Under the pieces are notes generated by a model. The model had not been told where the DNA came from and did no database searches. It worked only from the letters and a program-made list of their open reading frames with translations. 64,000 nucleotides of DNA, from assembly GCF_016765655.2 (NCBI RefSeq), contig NZ_CP086108.1, positions 1 to 64,000 on the forward strand, read 5' to 3'. Made by a program: the position numbers and the translations under genes. This document shows positions 8,624 through 61,159 of the stretch, piece after piece (positions within the stretch are counted from its first letter, which is position 1; each line of letters starts with the position of its first letter). Origin of the DNA: Skermanella mucosa. Lineage in GTDB: Bacteria > Pseudomonadota > Alphaproteobacteria > Azospirillales > Azospirillaceae.

Positions 8624-10245
8624 TCTAACCGCAATTATGCACGAGGGCTGGCAGGCATAGCGTAAAGCCCTGATCTAGCTTAGGATTCGGCTGCTGACAC
8701 CCATCCCACCGGATCCGGATTGCTATGCCCGCCACAGTTGAACTTACCCCATCGCTGCCCGGCCTGTCACCTGTCGCCGGCAAGCCCGTGGTCGCCCGCT
8801 TCGATGGCGGGCGGCTGTCCTCCGATGCCGGCGTGCTGGGCCTGCGGGAGATCGAGAAGCGGCTCGGGATTGCCGACCGGCTTGCGGCGTGCCTGGAAGA
8901 CCCCCGGACGCCCGGGCGGATCGTTCATGGACTGGCGGAGATCATCCGCTTCCGCCTGCTTATGATCGCGGCCGGCTACGAGGACGGCAACGACGCCGAC
9001 AGCCTGCGCCGGGATCCGGCGTTCAAGCTGGCGCTCGACCGCCTGCCGGACGATGCTGGCCTGTGCTCGCAGTCCACCATCTCGCGCCTGGAGAACCTGC
9101 CCGATACCCGCGCCCTGCTGCGCATGGGCCGCGCTCTGGTCGATTTCTACTGCGCCGGGTTCCGGCAGGTCCCAAAGCGGATCGTGCTGGATATTGATGA
9201 CACCTTCGATGCCGTTCACGGCGAGCAGCAACTGCGTCTGTTCAATGGCCATTACGACGAGTACGGCTTCCAGCCGATCGTCGTTTTCGACGAGCACGGG
9301 CGCTTCGTCACCGCCATCCTGCGTCCGGCCAGGCGACCCAAAGGCACTGAGATCCGGGCGCACCTGCGTCGGATCGTGCGGCAGATCCGGGCCAACTGGC
9401 CGCAGGTCGAGATCCTGCTGCGCGCCGACAGTCATTACTGCTGCCCCGAGGTTCTGAACTGGTGCCGGGCCAACCGCCTGGACTATGTGCTCGGCCTGGC
9501 GCCAACCAGCACGCTGCGGCGGCATATCCTCGACCTGGAGGCCAGCACCGCCGCCCGGTTCGCCGCCGGTCCCGGGACCGCCAAGGTCCGGCGCTTCAAG
9601 GAATTCTACGACGCCGCCGGAAGCTGGAGCCGGACCGAGCGGATCATTGCGCGCGTTGAAGTCGGGCCGCAGGGCCCGGACACCCGCTTCATCGTCACCA
9701 GCCTGCGCCACGGCCGGGGGCGGTGGCTCTATGAGAAACTCTATTGCGCCCGCGGCCAGGCGGAAAATCACATAAAGAGCTGGAAGGCGCATCTGTGCGC
9801 CGACCGCACCTCCTGCCACAAGGCCACCGCCAACCAGTTCCGGCTGTTTCTGCATGCCGGCGCCTACTGGTTGCTGTGGTCGATGCGCGCCCTGATGCCG
9901 CGCCGGTCGCGCTGGCGAGTCGCCCAGTTCGACTCGTTGCGCCTGCGTTTGATCAAACTGGCGGCCCGGATCGTCGAGACCAGGCGGCAAATCCTCGTCC
10001 ACCTGCCTACCGCCTGCCCGGAGCAAACTGTCCTGCGCCTGCTCCTGGAGCGGGTTCCCCGACTCGTCACCTGAACGCCGGGGCCGAGTGCCCCTGTTCC
10101 GCCCAACCCGCCAACCTCAAGACCTCTCACCATTGCAGCGCCGCCCAATCGGCGTTACGGCCAACCCTTGCCTGAACAGCTAAAAGTTGAAGAAAGGCAG
10201 AGAACTTCAGAGCGCTTTCCGGCCTGGTGCATTAATGCGGCTAAA
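8624..10245 (+). mobile_element. IS1380-family insertion sequence
   Basis: An approximately 1.62 kb element bounded by imperfect inverted repeats: left 8624-8642 (TCTAACCGCAATTATGCAC) and right 10227-10245 (GTGCATTAATGCGGCTAAA), 15 of 19 bases complementary by eye, with weaker complementarity continuing inward. It encloses one transposase gene. Size fits the family (about 1.5-2 kb). I see no convincing target-site duplication, so exact ends could be off by a few bases. It sits beside the broken IS630 copy and next to the AT-rich orphan gene. Confidence 0.75.
8725..10074 (+). CDS. IS1380-family DDE transposase
   Basis: This 449-residue transposase catalyses movement of its element. The N-terminus PVVARFDGGRLSSDAGVLGL and the following EIEKRLGIADRL are characteristic of IS1380. 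DDE residues are visible in order: VLDIDDTFD (~residues 156-164), LLRADSHYC (~233-241) and ARGQAENHIKSWK (~340-352). The length is normal and there is no internal stop or frameshift, so it looks functional. It reads in the same direction as the IclR gene and away from the AT-rich gene that follows. Confidence 0.92.
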   Translation: MPATVELTPSLPGLSPVAGKPVVARFDGGRLSSDAGVLGLREIEKRLGIADRLAACLEDPRTPGRIVHGLAEIIRFRLLMIAAGYEDGNDADSLRRDPAFKLALDRLPDDAGLCSQSTISRLENLPDTRALLRMGRALVDFYCAGFRQVPKRIVLDIDDTFDAVHGEQQLRLFNGHYDEYGFQPIVVFDEHGRFVTAILRPARRPKGTEIRAHLRRIVRQIRANWPQVEILLRADSHYCCPEVLNWCRANRLDYVLGLAPTSTLRRHILDLEASTAARFAAGPGTAKVRRFKEFYDAAGSWSRTERIIARVEVGPQGPDTRFIVTSLRHGRGRWLYEKLYCARGQAENHIKSWKAHLCADRTSCHKATANQFRLFLHAGAYWLLWSMRALMPRRSRWRVAQFDSLRLRLIKLAARIVETRRQILVHLPTACPEQTVLRLLLERVPRLVT

Positions 10246-10353
10246 AAGCAAGCCCAGGCTCCGGTGTCAATCGTGCGATACCCGCAGCCGTGATACCGAA
10301 AATGCCCACCATCGCACCACTCCGCTGGAAACCCTCAAAGGATGCAGAATTAT

Positions 10354-11811
10354 TCAATCCGAAAGCTTAGAAATCCCTAAAGTCCTTTCTATCTGCTTTC
10401 TCAGATTTGATAATCCTCGAATTTCACTCGGAGTATTTGGAAGTGTAATACTATCTAAGCCATCATAACCTATATTTGCTTCCATACGATAATGTTTATT
10501 ATTAGCCTTCTTCATGTATCCATGATGAGAAAGTAAAACAGATAATTCACCCCTTAACCTCTTAGGGTTCTTTGTTGCCCTTTCAAGGTCTTCAATCAAC
10601 TCAATCAACCCATGGGATACTGGAAGATTCTTAATGATTGAGGTGAGAATCACTTTGCTTCGACGATCAAGGCCAGTTTGCTCCGCAGTCTGACAGGCAA
10701 GCTTTGCCGCCAATCGAATGCGATCTGAAAACTCACCAGGATAAATTTCACTACCGATGCGTTCAATAAACTGATCAGACAAAATGCCTTCTTCATCACG
10801 AGACGATACTTCATTTTGAGACCGAACTGCAACTTCTTCCTCAAGTTGCTTTATCCTATCGCGAAGGTTGGCAATCTCTTCTAAATAAAGCTTCTCTATC
10901 TCGTCGTTATTCAGTCGGGAACGATCACGAATGCGTTGCTTTTGGAGCGCTTGCTCCTGCAATTCAGTCCAATCCCAACCTTTTGATGGCATTTCGCTAC
11001 GGGCATAGATTGAGGCTGATTTCACTGCTGTGAGAAGATCATGCCCGACTTGTAACTTCCAATTAGGGAAAAACTTTCGTATAAAACCTTGTCCCGGCAA
11101 AGAAATACCGATTCTCCCTCCGTGAGCAATGACAACGTTGATCTTATCTCTTAAATCAAAAGAGAATTTTTTACTTGGCTCGACTATCACATGTGCTACA
11201 CCACCGAGATCATAAGCCAATTTCTCAATTTGACTCCTCTCAAGTAGCCATGTTGATGCACCCCGAGCTGACAAATAAATGACAGGAAGAAAACGGCTTG
11301 CTTGACCAAGAACAATGCTTTTGGCTAAATCTATAGATTCTTTATTGTCTTTGAGCCAGATCGGCTTGTCTGATACTTCTAATAAATTATCTTTTCCTCC
11401 CCAACTGTCATTTAACATTGACTTTATTATATATGGTTTGCGGGGAAATTCTAACTTAACGTTAGGTTCAACTGCAATGCATTGTGTCTTTATGCGGATG
11501 AGATCTTGCCGCTCCGTACCGGCACCGCAGACTATCACCACTTCTGTGCGCCAGAGCCGGCCATCATTGTCTGCAAAGTCATGCCTAAAGCCAATGGCAC
11601 TCAAATTCCCTTGGTCGGATATCTCCCGGAATCGTAGTTCTTCTCCGCTGGCTGACCGGAGGTATGCATTTTCGGTTTCCAGAACTTCATGCTCATACTG
11701 ATTCAATACAGTACTGTACTTCGTCCCATGCAGCCAAGCCATGACTTGTGCTACAAAATAAGCACGATTATTTACTGGTTTGATAGGGAATTCTGTTGCA
11801 AAAACTCGCAT
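10354..11811 (-). CDS. AT-rich orphan protein of unknown function, coiled-coil containing
   Basis: A 485-residue protein I do not recognise. Its DNA is conspicuously AT-rich compared with everything around it (codons such as AAA, TTA, AAT are frequent), which suggests acquisition from another genus. The N-terminal ~250 residues look like an alpha/beta domain (AYFVAQVMAWLHG, WRTEVVIVCGAG, FLPVIYLSARGAS, VAHVIVEPS). Residues ~300-335 are a likely coiled coil (EKLYLEEIANLRDRIKQLEE). The C-terminal ~130 residues are helical and basic. No Walker, nuclease or TIR motif is obvious, and no partner gene overlaps it. Being single, horizontally acquired and next to an IS element, it could be a defence or regulatory gene, but that is conjecture. 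Confidence 0.7.
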   Translation of the reverse strand: MRVFATEFPIKPVNNRAYFVAQVMAWLHGTKYSTVLNQYEHEVLETENAYLRSASGEELRFREISDQGNLSAIGFRHDFADNDGRLWRTEVVIVCGAGTERQDLIRIKTQCIAVEPNVKLEFPRKPYIIKSMLNDSWGGKDNLLEVSDKPIWLKDNKESIDLAKSIVLGQASRFLPVIYLSARGASTWLLERSQIEKLAYDLGGVAHVIVEPSKKFSFDLRDKINVVIAHGGRIGISLPGQGFIRKFFPNWKLQVGHDLLTAVKSASIYARSEMPSKGWDWTELQEQALQKQRIRDRSRLNNDEIEKLYLEEIANLRDRIKQLEEEVAVRSQNEVSSRDEEGILSDQFIERIGSEIYPGEFSDRIRLAAKLACQTAEQTGLDRRSKVILTSIIKNLPVSHGLIELIEDLERATKNPKRLRGELSVLLSHHGYMKKANNKHYRMEANIGYDGLDSITLPNTPSEIRGLSNLRKQIERTLGISKLSD

Positions 11812-11812
11812 G

Positions 11813-11825
11813 ATGAGAATCTCAT
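11813..11825. promoter_or_regulatory. 13 bp palindrome over the translation-start region of the AT-rich gene
   Basis: ATGAGAATCTCAT is a perfect palindrome with one central base. It begins two bases upstream of the start codon (read leftward) of the gene at 10354-11811, where a ribosome-binding site would lie. It could be an autoregulatory operator or could mask initiation; only its position and symmetry are observed. Confidence 0.4.
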
Positions 11826-12405
11826 GACAGAAAGGAGTACGCTCTAAAATTTAGCCTTTATCACATACTAAATCTATAAAAACATTCCGAGAAATTCCTT
11901 CGATATCTACTAATAACAGCCTGTTTATTGTTAACCCTAAATTATGTTAACACTCCAAACTTCTGTAATTCGTTTTTCGGGTCCCGTTTCTGACTAATAC
12001 CTTGCTACATACTGTTGAAGGTTGCGACAAAGCAGAAAATGCTAGGGAATCCGTGTTTTCCCCCATGGCAGATGGCGATAACGTCCTGTACAAGAGTACT
12101 ATACCAAGCCGTCGGCGCGCTGACCCACGCACCACATCGGCCTTATGTCTCCTTCAAGCGGTACCACCGCTTCACGTAGCTCCCCCACCCGGCACCAGCG
12201 TCAAACTGACGCGACATTCCCAACGCGCAGCCACCCTCTCGGTTGCCGCACCCAACCCCGCACCCACTTACCAGAGTATTTGACAATGCGCCCGCATTCG
12301 GCGCACTGTTCGCGTGCCGTCGCACCCCGCGAGGCGGCCGAGCAAGGAGTTACCAGCTCCCCACCCGGCCTGACCACCGATCACACCTGTCAAGGAAGAT
12401 CATCG
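11826..12405. other. Intergenic stretch without a convincing gene
   Basis: The left ~300 bp are AT-rich and probably carry the leftward promoter of the orphan gene and the boundary of the acquired DNA. GC-rich host-like sequence resumes near 12100. Short open frames here lack codon bias, family motifs or ribosome-binding sites. Confidence 0.6.
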
Positions 12406-50858: not shown

Positions 50859-51539
50859 ATGTCGACCACCTATACGCTGACCATCACCATGGACGATACT
50901 ACCGTCAATGACCTGCTGAACTCCGGTTATTACTTGTACGCCTACAAGGCGGTGCAGGCGGCCAACGCGAACGGCGGCGCGCCGCTGGTCTGGTTCCAGA
51001 CCCAGACCATCTCGGAAAACACGGTGATCACCTGGACCGAGAGCTATGAGGCCTATACCTCGACGGAGACGAGCTTCACCGACGGCACGGTCATCAACGC
51101 CAGCGCCAGCTACCCCATCAACCTGGGCCAGGAACTCCAGGTGAACTCCGTCGCGGGCACCGGCACAATCGTCAACTCGTCCAACACCAGCGTGATCTCC
51201 ATCCTCAACCAGACCAGCACCCAGTTCACCTGCGGCATCTCGCAGTCGGTCCAGGGCTCGTCGGGCTCCCAGCTCTGCGCGCTGCCGCTCTACGGCAACA
51301 ACCTGGACACCATCACGCCGGTCGAACAGGTCTTGGTGGTCTTCCAGACCGAGCAGGTGGACACGGGATCGGTCGTCTACCAGTGCTACGCGCCCAGCCT
51401 GCTGGTCAACATGACCGGAATGACCGCGGCGTCGATCAGCTACGACATCAACACCAACTGGTCGGGCAACACCGAGGGATGGTGCACCCAGTACGAGGCC
51501 GGGACCGATATCACCCCGATCCTGGTCCAGCAGTCCTGA
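50859..51539 (+). CDS. Protein of unknown function, first of a tandem pair
   Basis: A 226-residue soluble protein with no signal peptide or membrane segment and few charged residues. It is Thr/Ser/Asn-rich, beta-sheet-like and has cysteines in FTCGISQ, LCALPLYG, YQCYAP and WCTQYE. It starts MSTTYTLTITMDDTTVNDLL and shares with the following gene GGAPLVWFQT, EAYTS, GQELQVNSVAGTG, CGISQ, ALPLYG, TPVEQVL and YDINTNW. I do not recognise the family. It lies after the AT-rich control region and before the PPTase/NRPS genes. A link to the NRPS product (binding, packaging, toxicity) is only suggested by proximity. Confidence 0.75.
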   Translation: MSTTYTLTITMDDTTVNDLLNSGYYLYAYKAVQAANANGGAPLVWFQTQTISENTVITWTESYEAYTSTETSFTDGTVINASASYPINLGQELQVNSVAGTGTIVNSSNTSVISILNQTSTQFTCGISQSVQGSSGSQLCALPLYGNNLDTITPVEQVLVVFQTEQVDTGSVVYQCYAPSLLVNMTGMTAASISYDINTNWSGNTEGWCTQYEAGTDITPILVQQS

Positions 51540-51620: not shown

Positions 51621-52325
51621 TTGGGCAGTTACAGCATTCAGATCACGATGGATCAGGACACGCTGACCGACCTCCTGGATTCGGGATTCAGGCTGCTCGT
51701 CTTCAAGGCGGTGTGCACCACCATGGGGGGCGGCGCGCCGCTGGTCTGGTTCCAGACCACCGATTACAGCCTGTCGAACATGGTCGGCTGGAGCACGTCG
51801 ACGGAAGCCTACACCTCGCCGACCACGACCACGACCGTGGCGCAGGGGCAGACGGTCGTCGCCAGCACGACCTACTCGATCACGGCCGGCCAGACCCTTC
51901 AGGTGACATCGGCCGCCGGAACCGGGGCGGTGGTCGCCAACGGCTCCACGACGGAGATCTACATCGACAACACCACCACCAGCGAGTTCCTCTGCGGCCT
52001 GTGCCAGCAGCTTTCCTGGCAGGGTGTCGCCGGCGCGTACGAACCGACTTTCGCGCTGCCGCTCTACGGCGGGATCATCGATGTCGTCACCCCCGCCGAA
52101 ACGGTCCTGATCGCGTTCGACACCGATCCGCTGACCGCGGGGATGGCGGCCTACCAGCTCCTCTCCCCCGCGCTGCTCGTCGATTTCTCGGAAGCCAGCG
52201 AGACCACGCTCGACGTCACCTATGCGATCAACACCAACTGGGCGGCCAACACCGCCGCGTGCTACACCCAGGTCGCCGCGGGCCAGGAGCTGGTGCCGCT
52301 GCTGTTCCTCCAATCCGACGACTGA
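51621..52325 (+). CDS. Protein of unknown function, second of a tandem pair
   Basis: A 234-residue paralogue of the preceding protein. Translation begins at a TTG (51621) after an excellent GGAGGGAG ribosome-binding site. It carries the same ordered motifs: SIQITMDQDTLTDLLDSG, GGAPLVWFQTTDYS, STEAYTS, AGQTLQVTSAAGTGAVV, EFLCGLCQQLSW, ALPLYGG and ITNTNW-type NTNWAANT. Length and motif order show a tandem gene duplication followed by divergence. No signal peptide is present. The 81 bp between the two genes lacks a terminator, so they are probably co-transcribed. Confidence 0.72.
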   Translation: MGSYSIQITMDQDTLTDLLDSGFRLLVFKAVCTTMGGGAPLVWFQTTDYSLSNMVGWSTSTEAYTSPTTTTTVAQGQTVVASTTYSITAGQTLQVTSAAGTGAVVANGSTTEIYIDNTTTSEFLCGLCQQLSWQGVAGAYEPTFALPLYGGIIDVVTPAETVLIAFDTDPLTAGMAAYQLLSPALLVDFSEASETTLDVTYAINTNWAANTAACYTQVAAGQELVPLLFLQSDD

Positions 52326-52362: not shown

Positions 52363-53196
52363 TCAGTGAGCCGCTTCCTGCACGCCGGCCGGGCCGAGCG
52401 GCACGACGCGGTGCAGGCGGGCCTGGAGTCGCGGGGCGGAAGGGCATCCGGGCTTCCGTCCGGCCGCCACGGCCATCAGGTGGTTCCCGGTCGGTTGGAA
52501 GGTCGCGAAGGACCAGCGGGCGGCATCGTCTTCCAGGTCGGGCTCGAAGGCGATGCGGATGCGGGTCGGATCGGCCGGGTCGATGGCGAAGCGGTCGAGC
52601 GGGATCGACAGGCCAAGCCCCCGCGCCTTGATGTAAGCCTCCTTCAGGGTCCAGTAGGTGAAGAAACGGCGGGTCCGGCCGGCGGGCGGCAGCGACCGCA
52701 GGTCGGCCACTTCCGCCGGGGCGAGGAAGCGGCCGGCGATCTCCATCAGGTCGCCGGCGCGTTCCAGGTTCTCGACGTCGATGCCGATCTCGCGATCGGC
52801 GGCGACGGCGCAGGCGACCATGCCGTTCGTGTTGGACAGGTTGAACTCCAGGCCGGAAAGGCCGGAAAGGCCGGGCAGGGCGGGGCCGGCGATTTCCGGC
52901 CGGCCGTGGGCGTTGGCCCGGAACCGCCAGGCGGCCGGCGGAACGTCCGCATAGCGGGACAGCACGGTGCGCACCAGCGCCCGCGTCACGAGGTATTCGT
53001 GCCGCGCCCGGTCGTTGAGGTAGCGGCGATACCGGTTGATTTCCTCCGGCGCCAGCAGGGCACGGTAGGATTCCGACAGGTCCGACACCGTCGGCGAGTC
53101 GGACAACACGTAGTAGATGTCGACCTGGCCGGGCTCCGGGATCATCGTTGCGCTTTCAGTTTGCCCTAGGACCAAGTGCCAACCACCAGACGACAT
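52363..53196 (-). CDS. Sfp-type 4'-phosphopantetheinyl transferase
   Basis: A 277-residue enzyme that transfers phosphopantetheine from CoA to the serine of carrier-protein domains. Signature motifs are present: REIGIDVENLERAGD (Mg2+ site) and FFTYWTLKEAYIKARGLGLS (the WxxKEA motif). It lies one gene away from the NRPS on the opposite strand and should activate its two carrier domains. Starts at 53145, 53196 and 53214 are possible; I used 53196 because WHLVLGQ fits the family's N-terminus. The C-terminal ~25 residues are basic. Confidence 0.88.
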   Translation of the reverse strand: MSSGGWHLVLGQTESATMIPEPGQVDIYYVLSDSPTVSDLSESYRALLAPEEINRYRRYLNDRARHEYLVTRALVRTVLSRYADVPPAAWRFRANAHGRPEIAGPALPGLSGLSGLEFNLSNTNGMVACAVAADREIGIDVENLERAGDLMEIAGRFLAPAEVADLRSLPPAGRTRRFFTYWTLKEAYIKARGLGLSIPLDRFAIDPADPTRIRIAFEPDLEDDAARWSFATFQPTGNHLMAVAAGRKPGCPSAPRLQARLHRVVPLGPAGVQEAAH

Positions 53197-53377
53197 AGGT
53201 TTGTGATCACGCACCCTGGGGAAAACCGTAGCTCAGCGTGCCTGCCCCTCGCTCCGGGCTCGCCTGCCGCCGATCCTCCCATTCCGCACCACAATGGCCG
53301 CAGTGCCGGAAAGGATCAACGGCAGGATCGGGGCAGACCGGGGTCCCGGCCAGCCGTCCTGACGGGAACCGCGACGT

Positions 53378-53956: not shown

Positions 53957-56900
53957 ATGCCAGATACCGACAGCAGCGAAGCCGACCTAGACCTTCTCGA
54001 CTTTCTCCTAGACGAAGACGGCGATTCCCCGCCGCAGCGCGGGACCGGCATCGGGATCCGCCCGGCGGACGGGGTGCGGGACGGGGGGCCTCGCCGGGCC
54101 CCGCTGTCGTTCCAGCAGCGGCGCATGTGGTACCTGCACCGCCTGGACGAGAGCGCCGCCTACACGATCTGCCTGGCCTTCCGGCTGGACGGGAGGTTCG
54201 AGCCCGGGGCCTTCGAGGCGGCGGTCGGCGACGTGGTGGCGCGCCACGCGGTCCTGCGCACCCGCTACGAGGAGCGGGACGGCGAAGGCGAGCAGGTGGT
54301 CGAGCCGGCGGGGCCGGTCCCGGTCGGGCTGTTCGACTGGCGGGACCGGGCGGAGGACGGCGAGGCCCTGGCGGCGGCGATCCGCGAGGAGAGCGCGCGG
54401 CCGTTCGACCTGGGCCGGGGATCGCCGCTGCGGGCGACGGCGATCCGGATCGCGGAGTCACGGACCGCGATCGTCCTGGCGATCCACCATATCGCGGCCG
54501 ACGCCTGGTCGTTGGGCATCCTGTCGGGCGACCTGCTGTCGGCCTACCGGGCGCGGCTGGCCGGTGGCGCCCCCGCCTGGGCGCCGCTGCCGGTCTCCTA
54601 CGCCGACTTCGCGGCCTGGCAGCGGGAGACCTACGGGCCGGAAAGCATCGCGGACGACCTGGACTATTGGCGGAGGCGGCTGGCCGGGCTGCCGGTGCTG
54701 GACCTGCCGACCGACAGGCCGCGCCCGCGCCTGCAAAGCTTCGACGGCGCGCTGGTCCCCTTCGCGGTTCCGGCCGCGGCGGCGGACCGGCTGCGCCGGT
54801 TGGCCTCGGCCGCGCGCACCACCCAGTTCACCGCCCTGATGGCGCTCTTCCAGATGCTGCTGGCGCGGCACTGCCGGCAGGACGACGTGCCGGTCGGCAC
54901 CTCGCTGGCCAACCGGGAGCGGCTGGAGACCCAGGGGCTGGTCGGATTCTTCGTCAACATGGTGGTGGTGCGCGGCGACCTTTCCGGCGACCCGGGGTTC
55001 GCGGCGCTGCTGGAGCGGCAGCGCGGGCTGGTGCTGGAGGCGTTCGACCACGCGACCCTGCCGTTCGAGATGCTGGTGGAGGCGCTGGACCTGCCGCGCG
55101 ACACCGGCCGCAACCCGCTGTTCCAGGTCGCCTTCACGCTGCTGGACCCGACCCCGCCGCCGACCGCCGGCGGGGAGTTCGCGGTCGAGCCGCTGCTGAC
55201 CCAGGAGGCCGCCCGCTTCGACCTGGAGCTGTTCATCCGGGAGGAGGCGGGCGGCGGCCTGTCCGGGGTGTTCTCCTACAATACGGACCTGTTCGAGGCG
55301 GAATCGGTCGCCCGGCTGGCGCGGCAGTTCGTGACCCTGGCGGAGAGTGCTGCGGCGGCGCCGGACATGCCGGTGTCGCGCCTGCCGCTGATCGGGCCGG
55401 ACGAGCGGGCGGCGCTGCTGACCGGGCCGAAGCGGCCGGCGGCGCCCTTCGCCGAAGGGGTCCACGACCGGTTCGTCCGCCACGCGCGGGAGCGGGCCGG
55501 GGCCACCGCGCTGAGGCTGAACGGCGAGCGGCAGGGCTACGGCGCGCTGGAACGCCGGTCCGCCGCGATCGCCGGGCGGCTGCGGTCGCTGGGGATAGGG
55601 GCCGGCGACCGCGTCGCCCTGTGGTTCGAGCCGTCGCTGGAGATGCCGGCGGCGATCCTGGGCGTGCTGCGGGCGGGGGCGGCCTATGTGCCGCTCGATC
55701 CCCATTATCCCGCCGACCGGGTCGCCCACGCGCTGGAGGACAGCGGCGTCGCGGCCGTCCTGACGACGGAAGCGCTGGCGCCCCGGGTGCCGCCCCGGGT
55801 GCAGTCGGGAACCACGGCGCCGGTGGTGTGCGTCGAGGACTGCGGGGACGCCGATGCCGAGGGGTTCGAGCCGGTCGCGGTCGGGCCGGACGACCTGGCC
55901 TATGTGATCTACACCTCCGGCTCGACCGGCAGGCCCAAGGGCGTGCTGGTCACCCACGGCAACCTGACCCGGCTGTTCGACGCGACCGACGCGTGGTTCC
56001 GCTTCGGCGCGCGGGACGTCTGGACGCTGTTCCATTCCTACGCCTTCGACTTCTCCGTCTGGGAGATCTGGGGCGCGCTGGCTCATGGCGGCGCGCTGGT
56101 GATCGTCCCGCGCGAGGTGGCGCGGGCGGCCGACGCCTTCTACGACCTGCTGTGCCGCGAGAAGGTGACGGTGCTGAACCAGACGCCGTCGGCCTTCCGC
56201 CAGCTGATCCAGGCGGAGGAGGCGGACCCGCGCGAGTCCGAACTGGCGCTGCGCTTCGTGGTGTTCGGCGGCGAGGCGCTGGACCTCGCCAGCCTGGAGC
56301 CGTGGCTGGACCGCCACGGCGACGACGCGCCGCGGCTGGTCAACATGTACGGCATCACCGAGACGACCGTCCACGTGACATACCGGCCGATCCGCTGGCG
56401 CGACGTCAAGCGCCGGCTGGGCAGCGTCATCGGCGAGCCGATCCCGGACCTGTTCATCCGCCTGCTCGACGACCACGGCGAGCCGGTGCCGCCCGGCATG
56501 GTCGGGGAGATCTGGGTCGGTGGCGCCGGCGTGGCGCGGGGCTACCTGAACCGGCCGGAGCTGACGGCGGAACGCTTCGTCCTGGATTCCGCCGGCGGCG
56601 GGCTTCTGTACCGCAGCGGCGATCTGGCGCGGGTCACCCCGGTGGGCGACCTGGAATATCGCGGGCGGGCCGACGCCCAGGTGAAGCTGCGCGGGTTCCG
56701 CATCGAGCTGGGGGAGATCCAGGCCGTGCTGTCGGACCATCCGGCGGTCGGCGACGTGGCGGTGGTGCCGCGCGGGGAGGGTGACGCCAAGCGGCTGGTC
56801 GCCTATGTCGTCCCGCGTCCCGGCGCGGACGGCGAGGCCGGAGGCGACGAGGGCTGGCGCGCCACCTTCGACATGATCTACGGAGGTGACGGGGAAGCGC

Positions 56901-59900
56901 GGGACTTCGATATTTCCGGCTGGAACGACAGCTACACCAACGCGCCGATCCCCGCGGCGGAGATGCGCGCCTGGCTGGACGAGACGCTGGACCGGCTGCG
57001 GGCGCTGGCGCCGCGCCGGGTGCTGGAGATCGGCTGCGGCACCGGGATGATCCTGTTCGGGCTGGCGCCGTCGGTCGAGCTTTACCACGGGCTGGATTTC
57101 TCCTCCCCCGTAGTCGAGCGGCTGCGCCGGGCGGCTGCGGCGCGCGGGCTGGACCATGTCACGGTGGAGCGGCGGGAGGCCGCCGACCTGGACGGGGTGC
57201 CCGGCGGCTTCGACCTGGTGGTGATCAATTCGGTCGCGCAATATTTCCCGAGCCGCGCCTATTTCATGGCGGTGGTGGAGGGTTCCCTGGCCCGGCTGGC
57301 GCCGGGCGGGCGGCTGTTCCTGGGCGATCTGCGCAACCGCGTGCTGCTGCGGGCGTTCCATGCCGACATCGCCGCCGCGACCGGGGCGGGACGGACCCGG
57401 CTGGAGCTGGCGCGCCGGCTTGCGCGCGCGGTCGAGCGCGAAAAGGAGATCCTGGTCGATCCCGCCTTCTTCTCGGCATTGGCGCGGCGGCCCGACGTGG
57501 CCGGCGTGGCCGCCATGCCCAAGGTGGCGGCGGGAGACAACGAGCTGACCCGCTTCCGATACGACGCCGTCGTGACGCTCAAGGGCGGCGCCGGGACCGT
57601 TGCGGGGGCGGAATATTCATCCTGGGCCGATTGCTGCACGGAAGGCCATCTGGCCGGGCGGCTGGCGCGGGAAACCTCCGGCTTCGGCATCTCGGGCATT
57701 CCCAACCGGCGGCTGGCCCGGCCGCTGGCGGCGCTGGCCTGGATCGAGGCCGACGGGCCGCCGGAGGAGGTGCTGGACCGGGCGCCCGGCGATCCGGCGG
57801 GCGGCCCGGCGGGGGCATTGGACGGCGCGGCGATCGCGCGGCTCGCCCGCGAGCACGGCTGGGAGGCGGTCCCGGGCTGGACCGCCGGAACGGAGGACGG
57901 GCGGCTGGACGTCCTGTTCCGCCGGCCGGGCGAGCCGGTGCCTGCTGGCGGCGCGCGGGAGATGCCGGCCGCCGCCGAGGCGCCGATCACTTATCTGAAC
58001 GAGCCGGCGCCGCCGGACCGGCGCGGCACGCTGGGGCGGGCGCTGCGCCGGCACGCCGCGTCGCGGCTGCCGGAACACATGGTGCCCGGGGCCTTCGTGT
58101 TCCTGGACCGGCTGCCGCTGGGGCCGACCGGCAAGCTGGACGCCCGCGCCCTGCCGGAACCCGGCGAGGACGGGCCGGCGGCCGGGACGGAGGGCGAACC
58201 ACCGCGCACCCCGCTGGAAGCCGCCGTGGCGGAGACCTGGGCGGAGGTGCTGGGCACCGCGCGGATCGGCATCCGCGACAATTTCTTCGAGGCCGGCGGC
58301 CACTCGCTGCTGGCGACCCGGGTGATCGCCCGCATCCGCGCGCGGTTCGGCATAGACCTGCCGCTGCGCCTGCTATTCGAGCGGCCGACCGTGGCCGAGT
58401 TCGCGGCGGAGCTGGCGGGGCGGCTGGGGCCGGACCCCGTTGAGGAGCGTGCCGACGGGGGCGCCGAGGGGATCATCCCGCCGGCCGACCGCACCGGCAT
58501 CCTGCCGCTCTCCTATGCCCAGCAGCGCCTGTGGTTCCTTGACCGGCTGATGCCGGGCACCGGCGTCTACAACGTGGCGCTGGGGCTGAAGCTGGATGGT
58601 GACCTGGACGAGGCGGCCCTGCGCCGGGCGCTGACCGGCCTGATCGCCCGGCACGAGACGCTGCGCACCCGTTTCCCCGTGGTGGACGGCCGGCCCTTCC
58701 AGGAGATCATGCCGCCGTTCGAAGCCCCCCTCGCCGTAAGGGACGGATCGGAGTTCGCGCTTCCGGCCATCCCGGACTCCGCAGGCCTGGGGCGGGCGCT
58801 GCGGCCGCTGGCCCTGGAGCCGATCGACCTGGACCGCGGGCCGCCGCTGCGGCTGACACTGGTCCGGCTCGCCCCCGGCTCCGCCGTCCTGGTGGCCGTG
58901 CTCCACCACGCCGTCACGGACGGCTGGTCCATGGGCGTGCTGGCGCGGGAGGTGACGGAGCTTTATCGCGCCGCGGTCGAGGGGCGGGCCGCCGGCCTGC
59001 CGCCGCTCCCGGTCCAGTACGCCGACTTCTCCGCCTGGCAGCAGCGGAGCCTGGCCGGCGCCGCGCTGGAGCGGCTGATCGGCCACTGGCGCGAGCGGCT
59101 GGCGGGCGCTCCCGAAGCGCTGGAGCTTCCCGCCGATGCGCCGCGCACCGCGGGAGCGGACCGTCCCGCCCGGTCCCGCCGCTTCCGGATCGATGCCGCG
59201 GAGACCGAAGCGCTGCGCGGGCTGGCCGGCCGGGGCGGCGCCACGCTGTTCATGGTGCTCTATGCCGGGTTCGCCCTGCTGCTGTCGCGCTGGAGCGGCC
59301 AGACCGACGTGGTCGTGGGCACGCCGATCGCGAACCGCACGCGCGACGACCTGGCCGGCCTGATCGGCTGCTTCGTCAATACCCTGGCCCTGCGGCTGGA
59401 CCTGTCGGGCGACCCTTCCGGGCGGGAGCTGGTCGAGCGGGCGCGCCGGGTGACCCTCGACGCCTATGCCCACCAGGACGCCCCGTTCGAGCTGGTGGTG
59501 GACGCCCTCGGGCTGAAGCGGTCGATCAGCCGCACGCCGCTGTTCCAGGCCATGTTGGTGCTTCAGAACGCGCCGGGCGGGCGGCTCGACCTGCCGGGGC
59601 TGACGGTCACGCCGCTGGCCGACGATGCCGGCGTCGCGCGCTTCGACGTGCTGCTGACCCTGGTCGAGCAAGGGGGCGGAATCGATGCCGTCCTGGAATG
59701 CGACGGAAGCCGTTTCAATGCCGCAACGGTCGAGCGAATGGAACGCCATTTCAGGCACCTGCTGGCTGAGCTGGCGGCCCGTCCCGAGGCCGGCGCGCTG
59801 CGGCTGCCCCTGGCCGACGCCGGGGCGGAGGCCGAGGCGATCCGGGCTTGGCAGCGGGCCGGGCGGGCGCCCCTGGATCTCGTCGCTCCCGGAACGGTCC

Positions 59901-61159
59901 CGCATGTCCTGGACGCGGATGGGGCGCCGGTGCCGGTCGGCCTGCCGGGAACGCTTTGGCTGGAGCGGCCGGGGGAGGCGCCGGTTCCGACCGGAGTCAC
60001 GGCGCGCTGGACCGAGGAGGGCGTGCTGGAGCGCCGGGACGCCGGGGCCGAGGCGCCGGAGCCGGAAGCGGCGGCGCCCGTCCGCGACGGGTCGGACCCG
60101 CCGAGCGCCACCGAGACCCGGCTGCTCGCCCTCTGGTCGGCCGTGCTGGAGCGGCCTGTGACCTCCGTCCATGCCGGTTTCTTCGAGCTTGGCGGGCATT
60201 CCTTCCTGGCGGTGCAGCTGATGGCCCGGGTCGAGGCGGCGTTCGGCTGCCGGCTGCCGCTGGCCAGCCTGTTCTCCGGCGGGACGGTCGCCCGGCAGGC
60301 GGCGCTGATCGACGCCCGGTCGGGCGGTGCCGACGAGGTGCTGGTGATGCTGCGCCCGGAGGGCGACCGGGGCACCATCCTGCTGCCGCACGAGGTCTCG
60401 GGCCATGTCCTCAGCTATGCGGCGCTCGCTGGGCGTCTGCCCGAGGGCTGGCGGGTGGCGGCGCTCCAGGCGCGCGGGCTCGACAATACCCGGCCGCCGG
60501 TGCGCGGGCTGCCCGAGATGGCCCGGGCCTATGCCGACGCCGTGCTGGCGGCCGGCCTGCCCGGTCCCTTCGTGCCGGTCGGCTACTCGTTCGGCGCGGC
60601 CCTGGCCGGCGAGCTGGCCGCCGAACTGGCGGCGCGCGGCCGGACGGTCGCCCGCGTCTGCGTGATCGACGCGCCGGCCAACCCGCAGGACTTCGCGGAC
60701 GGCATCGTGCCGGGGGACGAGGCCGGGCGGCTGCTCCACATGGTCCGGGCGGTCGAGCACTCCATGGGGCTCGATCTCGGCCTCGATGGCGCCGTGCTGA
60801 AGCAGTTCGGGCAGGAGACCCGGATCGACCTGGTGCACCGGCGGCTGGCCGCGACCGGGGCTTTCGGCGGGGCGGTCACGCGCGACCAGGTCGCCGGGAT
60901 GCTGGCGGTCTATGGCGCCAACCTGGACGCCCTGAGGAGCTTCCGGCCCAGGCGGATCGGCCCGCCCGTGGATGTCTGGGTGACCGACGCGCTGGCCGCC
61001 CGCCCCGGAACGGTGGCGGATCTCGGCTGGTCGGCTGTCACGGCCGGGCCGGTCGCGGTCCACCGGATCGGCGGCGACCATGCCTCCGTGATGAGGGAGC
61101 CGCTCGCCGGGGAATTGGCGGCCGCGATCGGCCGCGCCCTCGATCCCGCGCCGGGCTGA
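53957..61159 (+). CDS. Nonribosomal peptide synthetase, C-A-MT-PCP-C-(A remnant)-PCP-TE
   Basis: A 2400-residue NRPS. C1 covers ~residues 45-480; its active motif is HHIAADA (177-183), with Ala replacing the usual Gly. The A domain covers ~500-925: A3 YTSGSTGRPKG, A4 with D698/W702, A8 LRGFRIELGEI at 911-921. Aligned by hand to GrsA, its ten specificity residues read DFWNVGMVHK, nearly the threonine code. An N-methyltransferase is inserted between A8 and A10 (~985-1200; EIGCGTG at 1024-1030). PCP1 carries Ser1450 (GGHS). C2 covers ~1510-1945 with intact HHAVTDG at 1650-1656. Then ~55 residues (1977-2033) resemble the tail of an A domain, PCP2 has Ser2082, and the type I thioesterase has Ser2211 (GYSFGA) and a late His (GGDHAS). 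The product might contain N-methyl-threonine. No MbtH gene is seen. Confidence 0.92.
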   Translation: MPDTDSSEADLDLLDFLLDEDGDSPPQRGTGIGIRPADGVRDGGPRRAPLSFQQRRMWYLHRLDESAAYTICLAFRLDGRFEPGAFEAAVGDVVARHAVLRTRYEERDGEGEQVVEPAGPVPVGLFDWRDRAEDGEALAAAIREESARPFDLGRGSPLRATAIRIAESRTAIVLAIHHIAADAWSLGILSGDLLSAYRARLAGGAPAWAPLPVSYADFAAWQRETYGPESIADDLDYWRRRLAGLPVLDLPTDRPRPRLQSFDGALVPFAVPAAAADRLRRLASAARTTQFTALMALFQMLLARHCRQDDVPVGTSLANRERLETQGLVGFFVNMVVVRGDLSGDPGFAALLERQRGLVLEAFDHATLPFEMLVEALDLPRDTGRNPLFQVAFTLLDPTPPPTAGGEFAVEPLLTQEAARFDLELFIREEAGGGLSGVFSYNTDLFEAESVARLARQFVTLAESAAAAPDMPVSRLPLIGPDERAALLTGPKRPAAPFAEGVHDRFVRHARERAGATALRLNGERQGYGALERRSAAIAGRLRSLGIGAGDRVALWFEPSLEMPAAILGVLRAGAAYVPLDPHYPADRVAHALEDSGVAAVLTTEALAPRVPPRVQSGTTAPVVCVEDCGDADAEGFEPVAVGPDDLAYVIYTSGSTGRPKGVLVTHGNLTRLFDATDAWFRFGARDVWTLFHSYAFDFSVWEIWGALAHGGALVIVPREVARAADAFYDLLCREKVTVLNQTPSAFRQLIQAEEADPRESELALRFVVFGGEALDLASLEPWLDRHGDDAPRLVNMYGITETTVHVTYRPIRWRDVKRRLGSVIGEPIPDLFIRLLDDHGEPVPPGMVGEIWVGGAGVARGYLNRPELTAERFVLDSAGGGLLYRSGDLARVTPVGDLEYRGRADAQVKLRGFRIELGEIQAVLSDHPAVGDVAVVPRGEGDAKRLVAYVVPRPGADGEAGGDEGWRATFDMIYGGDGEARDFDISGWNDSYTNAPIPAAEMRAWLDETLDRLRALAPRRVLEIGCGTGMILFGLAPSVELYHGLDFSSPVVERLRRAAAARGLDHVTVERREAADLDGVPGGFDLVVINSVAQYFPSRAYFMAVVEGSLARLAPGGRLFLGDLRNRVLLRAFHADIAAATGAGRTRLELARRLARAVEREKEILVDPAFFSALARRPDVAGVAAMPKVAAGDNELTRFRYDAVVTLKGGAGTVAGAEYSSWADCCTEGHLAGRLARETSGFGISGIPNRRLARPLAALAWIEADGPPEEVLDRAPGDPAGGPAGALDGAAIARLAREHGWEAVPGWTAGTEDGRLDVLFRRPGEPVPAGGAREMPAAAEAPITYLNEPAPPDRRGTLGRALRRHAASRLPEHMVPGAFVFLDRLPLGPTGKLDARALPEPGEDGPAAGTEGEPPRTPLEAAVAETWAEVLGTARIGIRDNFFEAGGHSLLATRVIARIRARFGIDLPLRLLFERPTVAEFAAELAGRLGPDPVEERADGGAEGIIPPADRTGILPLSYAQQRLWFLDRLMPGTGVYNVALGLKLDGDLDEAALRRALTGLIARHETLRTRFPVVDGRPFQEIMPPFEAPLAVRDGSEFALPAIPDSAGLGRALRPLALEPIDLDRGPPLRLTLVRLAPGSAVLVAVLHHAVTDGWSMGVLAREVTELYRAAVEGRAAGLPPLPVQYADFSAWQQRSLAGAALERLIGHWRERLAGAPEALELPADAPRTAGADRPARSRRFRIDAAETEALRGLAGRGGATLFMVLYAGFALLLSRWSGQTDVVVGTPIANRTRDDLAGLIGCFVNTLALRLDLSGDPSGRELVERARRVTLDAYAHQDAPFELVVDALGLKRSISRTPLFQAMLVLQNAPGGRLDLPGLTVTPLADDAGVARFDVLLTLVEQGGGIDAVLECDGSRFNAATVERMERHFRHLLAELAARPEAGALRLPLADAGAEAEAIRAWQRAGRAPLDLVAPGTVPHVLDADGAPVPVGLPGTLWLERPGEAPVPTGVTARWTEEGVLERRDAGAEAPEPEAAAPVRDGSDPPSATETRLLALWSAVLERPVTSVHAGFFELGGHSFLAVQLMARVEAAFGCRLPLASLFSGGTVARQAALIDARSGGADEVLVMLRPEGDRGTILLPHEVSGHVLSYAALAGRLPEGWRVAALQARGLDNTRPPVRGLPEMARAYADAVLAAGLPGPFVPVGYSFGAALAGELAAELAARGRTVARVCVIDAPANPQDFADGIVPGDEAGRLLHMVRAVEHSMGLDLGLDGAVLKQFGQETRIDLVHRRLAATGAFGGAVTRDQVAGMLAVYGANLDALRSFRPRRIGPPVDVWVTDALAARPGTVADLGWSAVTAGPVAVHRIGGDHASVMREPLAGELAAAIGRALDPAPG

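What the first reader, a model, noticed from the sequence alone, without database searches (positions are those of the whole stretch)
59886..60055. Relic of a lost adenylation domain inside the NRPS second module
After the second condensation domain the sequence passes almost directly to a carrier domain. The ~55 residues between include VLDADGAPVPVGLPGTLW and TARWTEEGVLERRDAG. These read like the A-domain region around motifs A6-A7 (VLD..G.PVP.G.PGEL...TGD.ARW..DG.LE). An intact A domain of ~500 residues therefore seems to have been deleted in frame, leaving a working-looking C-PCP-TE. The PCP would then need loading in trans or the module may act as a relay, release or dimerisation step.
Basis: partly seen in the sequence, partly recalled or inferred. 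Interest (0 to 1): 0.75.

Follow-up and report, generated by a model that had tools for sequence, protein, structure and literature searches.

The report
Adenylation-domain relic in a peptide synthetase
The last module of this bacterial peptide-making enzyme has lost the domain that picks its amino acid and keeps only a scrap of it, while its other parts look intact, so the final building block must be loaded in some other way.

Summary
In the 2400-residue NRPS (window 53957-61159, +) residues 1977-2030, between C2 and PCP2, are a colinear remnant of adenylation motifs A6, A7 and the start of A8. Profile-profile comparison of four Skermanella homologues with an A-domain alignment gives 96.7% probability, score 68.9 (300 column shuffles: at most 22.2); it survives removal of loci fetched with a peptide from the remnant (95.6%, 59.7 against 19.1). 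The gene is in 4 of the 5 genus genomes searched; all four carry the remnant, none an intact second A domain there. Two distant synthetases of the same architecture (Pantoea herbicolin cluster, Burkholderia stagnalis) have an intact A domain at that place, and a tree groups both C domains with theirs. The A domain was therefore most simply lost in the Skermanella line. C2, PCP2 and TE keep their motifs and low dN/dS. In two genomes a seven-module herbicolin-like line without a TE accompanies the gene: nine modules, eight A domains. No other NRPS-type A domain above the family cut-off was found in all four. My best guess is that the upstream threonine-type A domain also charges PCP2, as reported for fungal SidD; that is inferred. 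New member of a known kind.

The parts
53957..61159 (+). NRPS gene, 2400 aa, C1-A1-MT-PCP1-C2-(A relic)-PCP2-TE
   Evidence: open frame, Pfam
54098..55420 (+). C1 condensation domain; motif HHIAADAW at 54485-54508
   Evidence: Pfam, motif and coordinates
55457..56836 (+). A1 adenylation domain, intact, the only full one; signature DFWNVGMVH read at landmarks recalled from memory, threonine-like
   Evidence: Pfam, signature
56963..57766 (+). methyltransferase domain inserted in A1 (likely N-methylation)
   Evidence: Pfam; 57-60% identity to the MT of Burkholderia and Pantoea homologues
58199..58420 (+). PCP1, motif GGHSL
   Evidence: Pfam, motif
58472..59806 (+). C2 condensation domain, active-site motif HHAVTDGW at 58904-58927, conserved as HHA[VI]TDGW in 4 of 4 homologues
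59801..59872 (+). remnant of the C-to-A linker (RLPL...AW...), residues 1949-1972
   Evidence: resemblance to the C-A linkers of intact modules; coordinates
59885..60046 (+). adenylation-domain relic, residues 1977-2030: A6-like 59903-59974, A7 to A8-start 59990-60046
   Evidence: HMM and profile-profile matches with shuffles; alignment to intact A2 of homologues
60119..60316 (+). PCP2, motif GGHSF, serine kept in 4 of 4 homologues
   Evidence: Pfam, motif
60359..61141 (+). thioesterase domain, GYSFGA at 60581-60598
   Evidence: Pfam, motif
52363..53214 (-). 4'-phosphopantetheinyl transferase gene next to the NRPS, also next to it in Skermanella rosea
   Evidence: Pfam, S. rosea annotation

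Best explanation
This is the terminal synthetase of a herbicolin-type lipopeptide line (or, in two of the four genomes, what remains of one) whose last module lost its adenylation domain in the Skermanella lineage. About 60 residues of the A domain (A6, A7, start of A8) stay as a non-catalytic spacer between C2 and PCP2. C2, PCP2 and TE are still used. PCP2 is charged by another A domain, most likely A1 of the same polypeptide, which would load both PCP1 and PCP2 with threonine; the MT methylates the unit on PCP1, C2 joins the chain to the unit on PCP2, TE releases it. Shown by computation: the relic, the intact A domain in orthologues, intact motifs and purifying selection, the accompanying seven-module line in two genomes. 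Inferred: that the module is active, that A1 loads PCP2, that the substrate is threonine.
For: Relic. Intact A2 between homologous domains in Burkholderia stagnalis and Pantoea; C1 and C2 of the Skermanella proteins each group with C1 and C2 of those two (support 100/99 and 100/97, tree of 41 chosen C domains). Motifs of C2, PCP2 and TE kept in 4 of 4 homologues; dN/dS of C2 0.18-0.26, PCP2 0.09-0.26, TE 0.28-0.44 in three pairs. Over the family cut-off the four genomes share no NRPS-type A domain but A1: S. rosea (G002) has only A1 and a Pls-like A-PCP protein, G004 only A1 and one further NRPS. Precedent: SidD A1 loads T1 and T2 where the second A domain is truncated (PMC10192304, passages read).
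Against: No direct test of loading. Below the cut-off each genome holds many adenylating enzymes (34 matches in all in G000), any of which might act in trans. PCP2 is only 39-42% identical to PCP1 (35-39% in the two homologues with their own A2), so it has hardly come to resemble A1's own carrier. The dN/dS of the relic (0.34-0.52) is below 1, and in the window-G002 pair it is lower than that of the TE (0.34 against 0.44), so the relic is not simply neutral. In G002 and G004 the upstream line was not found, so a partner supplying C1 is unknown there.
Confidence: 0.4

Rival explanations
1. PCP2 is charged in trans by a separate adenylating enzyme, as SyrB1 (with shuttle SyrC) does for the C-T-Te end of SyrE.
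For: SyrE is a nine-module line whose last module also lacks its A domain (PMC8949500, section 4.1 read). A Pls-like A-PCP protein lies on the same replicon in G000 and in G002, and its homologues are in G003.
Against: The Pls-like protein is a transmembrane hexapeptide-repeat type, no homologue of it is among the listed A-domain matches of G004, and no A domain above the cut-off lies in the 64 kb window but A1.
Confidence: 0.25
2. Relay or skip: no amino acid is added; the chain passes from PCP1 to PCP2 or straight to the TE, giving an octapeptide-type product.
For: There are eight A domains for nine modules in G000.
Against: If the module were bypassed, the C2 motif and low dN/dS should decay; they have not.
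Confidence: 0.2
3. The gene is dying or inactive; the lost A domain ended its use.
For: In G002 and G004 the rest of the line was not found.
Against: Open frames in the three full-length genes, dN/dS about 0.25-0.29 over the whole protein, and 0.23 on the G002 branch alone.
Confidence: 0.1
4. The A-like stretch is chance or convergent; no A domain was ever there.
For: The single window sequence matches Pfam only at E 0.056, and the G002 linker no longer beats its shuffles in the reduced test.
Against: The combined alignment beats all 300 shuffles in both tests, in the right order and position, and orthologues have the domain.
Confidence: 0.03

Closest known systems
Terminal synthetase of herbicolin A (Pantoea agglomerans ZJU23, WP_235765216.1)
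   Same: C-A-MT-PCP-C-?-PCP-TE; A1 59%, MT 60%, C1 45%, C2 43%, TE 32% identity; C1 and C2 group in the tree
   Different: Its second A domain is intact; PCP2 has GGDS where the four Skermanella proteins have GGHS
SidD / Nps6 fungal siderophore synthetases
   Same: Two modules, the second with a truncated A domain; A1 reported to load both carriers (PMC10192304, passages)
   Different: Fungal, a different and larger remnant (about 290 residues missing from the N terminus), iterative; loading not tested here
SyrE (syringomycin)
   Same: Nine-module lipopeptide line ending in C-T-Te without its own A domain (PMC8949500, section 4.1)
   Different: A known trans A-T partner and shuttle; whether SyrE keeps an A relic was not tested
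X domain of complestatin synthetase
   Same: A C-like domain followed by remnants of an A domain (PMC1894796, passages)
   Different: There the C domain itself is diverged; here C2 keeps its motif

Membership tests
NRPS terminal module C-A-PCP-TE | complete A domain between C and PCP | tested here: not met
   only about 60 residues of A remain
NRPS terminal module C-A-PCP-TE | C, PCP and TE with active-site motifs | tested here: met
   HHxxxDG, GGHS, GxSxG in 4 of 4 homologues
Herbicolin-type terminal synthetase | orthology of the domains along the protein | tested here: met
   domain identities, C1 and C2 tree
Herbicolin-type terminal synthetase | accompanied by upstream NRPSs and accessory genes of the herbicolin kind | tested here: inconclusive
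   found in G000 (about 280 kb away, with SDR, MbtH, ABC exporter, GT, hydrolase) and in G003 (adjacent; SDR and GT seen), not in G002 or G004
SidD-like intermodular loading | truncated second A domain | tested here: met
SidD-like intermodular loading | A1 charges the second carrier | not testable with these tools
   needs a biochemical loading assay
SyrE-like trans-loaded C-T-Te | a dedicated stand-alone A-T partner | tested here: inconclusive
   no shared NRPS-type A domain over the cut-off in the four genomes, weaker ones not excluded

The most novel reading that the evidence does not exclude
The relic is not mere debris: its A6-A7 strands persist as a small folded piece that docks A1 (or an outside A domain) so that it can charge PCP2, making this a bacterial terminal module that lives on a neighbour's adenylation domain.
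Probability: 0.12. Interest if true: 0.6.

Novelty: new member of a known kind. Interest (0 to 1): 0.42.

Why it matters
It is a natural experiment on the rule that each module has its own A domain: a clear before (Pantoea, Burkholderia) and after (Skermanella) pair, with the rest of the module kept. It makes testable how a carrier is loaded after its A domain is lost, and it warns that counting A domains would mispredict the product. Degenerate A domains and C-T-TE modules are already described, which limits the surprise.

Tried and rejected
Looking for the relic elsewhere: the four-row alignment A1 (relic plus PCP2) matched 9 of 385 genomes of the class and 9 of 398 of the phylum at E <= 1e-15, the window's own genome among them in both. 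Most other matches cover only the PCP part. Three reach into the relic part (G339, G091, G758); reading them showed intact A domains upstream, so they are not relics. Only up to 8 candidates a genome were scored there, so relics could have been missed. A C-PCP-TE end without any relic was met in G086.

The whole-class relatives search with the PCP-TE end gave matches in 28 of 99 genomes, but only G002-G004 (and the window) cover the linker; in the order, 4 of 82 genomes match C2-linker-PCP2 at E <= 1e-110. G001, of the same genus, lacks the gene. The nine loci were no orthologues. The identity of ARWTEEGVLE with four of nine rows is partly circular, because one search used WTEEGVLE as a search peptide; it is not counted as evidence, and repeats the tests without those loci.

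PDB sequence searches were weak: for the G003 linker 10 of 12 listed matches are adenylate-forming enzymes, best E 0.041; for the window linker 2 of 3, best E 0.33. A structure model (ten rows, nine of them intact modules, which favours an A-like fold) gives four short strands in the relic at pLDDT about 70-80 and disorder after it; no fold search was run. PCP1-PCP2 resemblance gave little.

Literature: searches were searched; I saw listings, passages of PMC8949500, PMC10192304, PMC3849588, PMC1894796 and PMC10364316, and section 14 of PMC8949500. The two listed papers that name Skermanella were not opened. I make no claim that this case is absent from print.

Full report
What is there. The NRPS gene at 53957-61159 (+) encodes 2400 residues with C1, A1, MT, PCP1, C2, PCP2 and TE. 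C2 ends near residue 1950 and PCP2 starts near 2055. Residues 1977-2030 (59885-60046) carry VLDADGAPVPVGLPGTLW and TGVTARWTEEGVLERRDAG.

Is it an A-domain relic? Pfam alone is suggestive: E 0.056 at the right end of PF00501 for the window linker, E 0.00087 for the G003 linker, nothing for G002 and G004. Homologues make it firm. Four linkers against an A-domain HMM score 22.7, 11.8, 10.7 and 8.6 bits, each above its own 2000 shuffles. The profile-profile match is 96.7%, score 68.9, with A6 and A7 in order and about 24 columns missing between them; 300 column shuffles reach 22.2. Because one search used a peptide of the relic to fetch loci that entered the HMM, I repeated the tests without them: 18 rows, 95.6%, 59.7 against 19.1; singly, G003, window and G004 still beat their shuffles, G002 (7.8 against 8.0) does not. 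Six control linkers gave -2.5 to -3.1 bits or no match. Aligned with the intact A2 of Burkholderia stagnalis and Pantoea, the relic covers A6, A7 and the first residues of A8, and residues 1949-1972 look like the C-to-A linker.

How widespread? The gene is in 4 of the 5 genus genomes searched: G000 (window), G002 (identical in place to Skermanella rosea plasmid pSR-1, NZ_CP086112.1), G003 and G004; not in G001. The G004 gene lies on two contigs. All four have the short linker with A-like sequence, and none has an intact A domain there. Outside the genus, in 82 genomes of the order, C2-linker-PCP2 has no match at E <= 1e-110. Scans with the relic-PCP2 alignment over 385 class and 398 phylum genomes gave no second relic, with the limit that few candidates a genome were scored.

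Before and after. Burkholderia stagnalis (WP_347469875.1) and Pantoea agglomerans ZJU23 (WP_235765216.1, herbicolin cluster) have C-A-MT-PCP-C-A-PCP-TE with 62/59% identity in A1, 57/60% in MT, 46/45% in C1, 44/43% in C2 and 40/32% in TE. In a tree of 41 chosen C domains, C1 and C2 of the Skermanella proteins each group with C1 and C2 of those two (100/99, 100/97). Loss of A2 in the Skermanella line is the simplest reading; with two outgroups, gain cannot be strictly excluded, but a gain would not leave A6-A7 sequence.

Is the module alive? The C2, PCP2 and TE motifs are kept in 4 of 4 homologues. dN/dS: C2 0.18, 0.26, 0.22; PCP2 0.26, 0.09, 0.19; TE 0.44, 0.28, 0.30; relic A6-A8 0.34, 0.52, 0.44 (window against G002, G003, G004). 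The relic changes faster than its neighbours against G003 and G004 (dN 0.50 and 0.35 against 0.16 and 0.15 for C2), hardly so against G002. On the G002 branch the whole protein is at 0.23, the relic at 0.82 from only nine changes. Yet seventeen or so relic positions, such as GLPG, LW, RWT and LER, are the same in all four. So the module is kept; the relic is looser but not free.

The assembly line. On the same replicon of G000, at about 343-370 kb, three NRPS genes (2167, 2966, 3734 aa) hold seven A domains; the last ends shortly after a PCP with no TE, and the PCP-TE query finds no other TE in G000. Beside them are genes 33-49% identical to the herbicolin SDR, MbtH, ABC exporter, glycosyltransferase and hydrolase. 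In G003 the homologous 3690-aa NRPS, SDR and glycosyltransferase lie next to the terminal gene, on the other strand. Signatures read at recalled landmarks give Thr, Thr, Thr, DAATVAAVC, Thr, DADHAGLVE, Gly-like, then Thr-like A1. With the window's two modules that makes nine modules and eight A domains; the herbicolin cluster has nine A domains (PMC10364316, passages). Joint action of the two loci in G000 is inferred. In G002 and G004 the upstream line was not found.

Who loads PCP2? Above the TIGR01733 cut-off, G000 has nine A domains, G002 two (A1 and a Pls-like A-PCP protein), G004 two (A1 and another NRPS). So the only one seen in all four is A1. SidD offers a precedent for A1 charging a second carrier beside a truncated A domain; SyrE for trans loading. 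PCP2 has GGHS in all four against GGDS in both orthologues with A2; this could mark a change of partner, but two outgroups are few. I put cis charging at about 0.4, trans at 0.25, relay or skip at 0.2, dead at 0.1. That the stretch is an A relic I hold at about 0.95.

Structure. A model of C2-relic-PCP2 puts strands at 1981-1985, 1998-2003, 2010-2018 and 2024-2026 with pLDDT of about 70-80 to residue 2025 and about 40 after it. The other rows were intact modules, so this leans towards an A-like fold and says little about function.

Noticed in passing
G000:C3 about 343-374 kb (loci L054, L055, L058), outside the window: A herbicolin-like cluster with seven modules and accessory genes but no terminal TE synthetase, about 280 kb from the window's terminal synthetase; contiguous with it in G003.
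   Followed up: partly
L056:3897-8225 (+), G000:C3 about 389-393 kb; homologue L059 in G002: Pls-like A-PCP protein with hexapeptide repeats, possibly a poly-amino-acid synthetase.
   Followed up: partly
window 54485-54508: C1 has HHIAADAW, with A in place of G in the HHxxxDG motif, in the three homologues that include C1; the Pantoea C1 has HHIISDAW.
   Followed up: no
L048 (G086), about 9524-11908: A C-PCP-TE end with a short linker and no A-domain relic in another family of the class.
   Followed up: partly
window 50859-51539 and 51621-52325: Two neighbouring, apparently related proteins without a Pfam match, also present beside the NRPS in Skermanella rosea.
   Followed up: no
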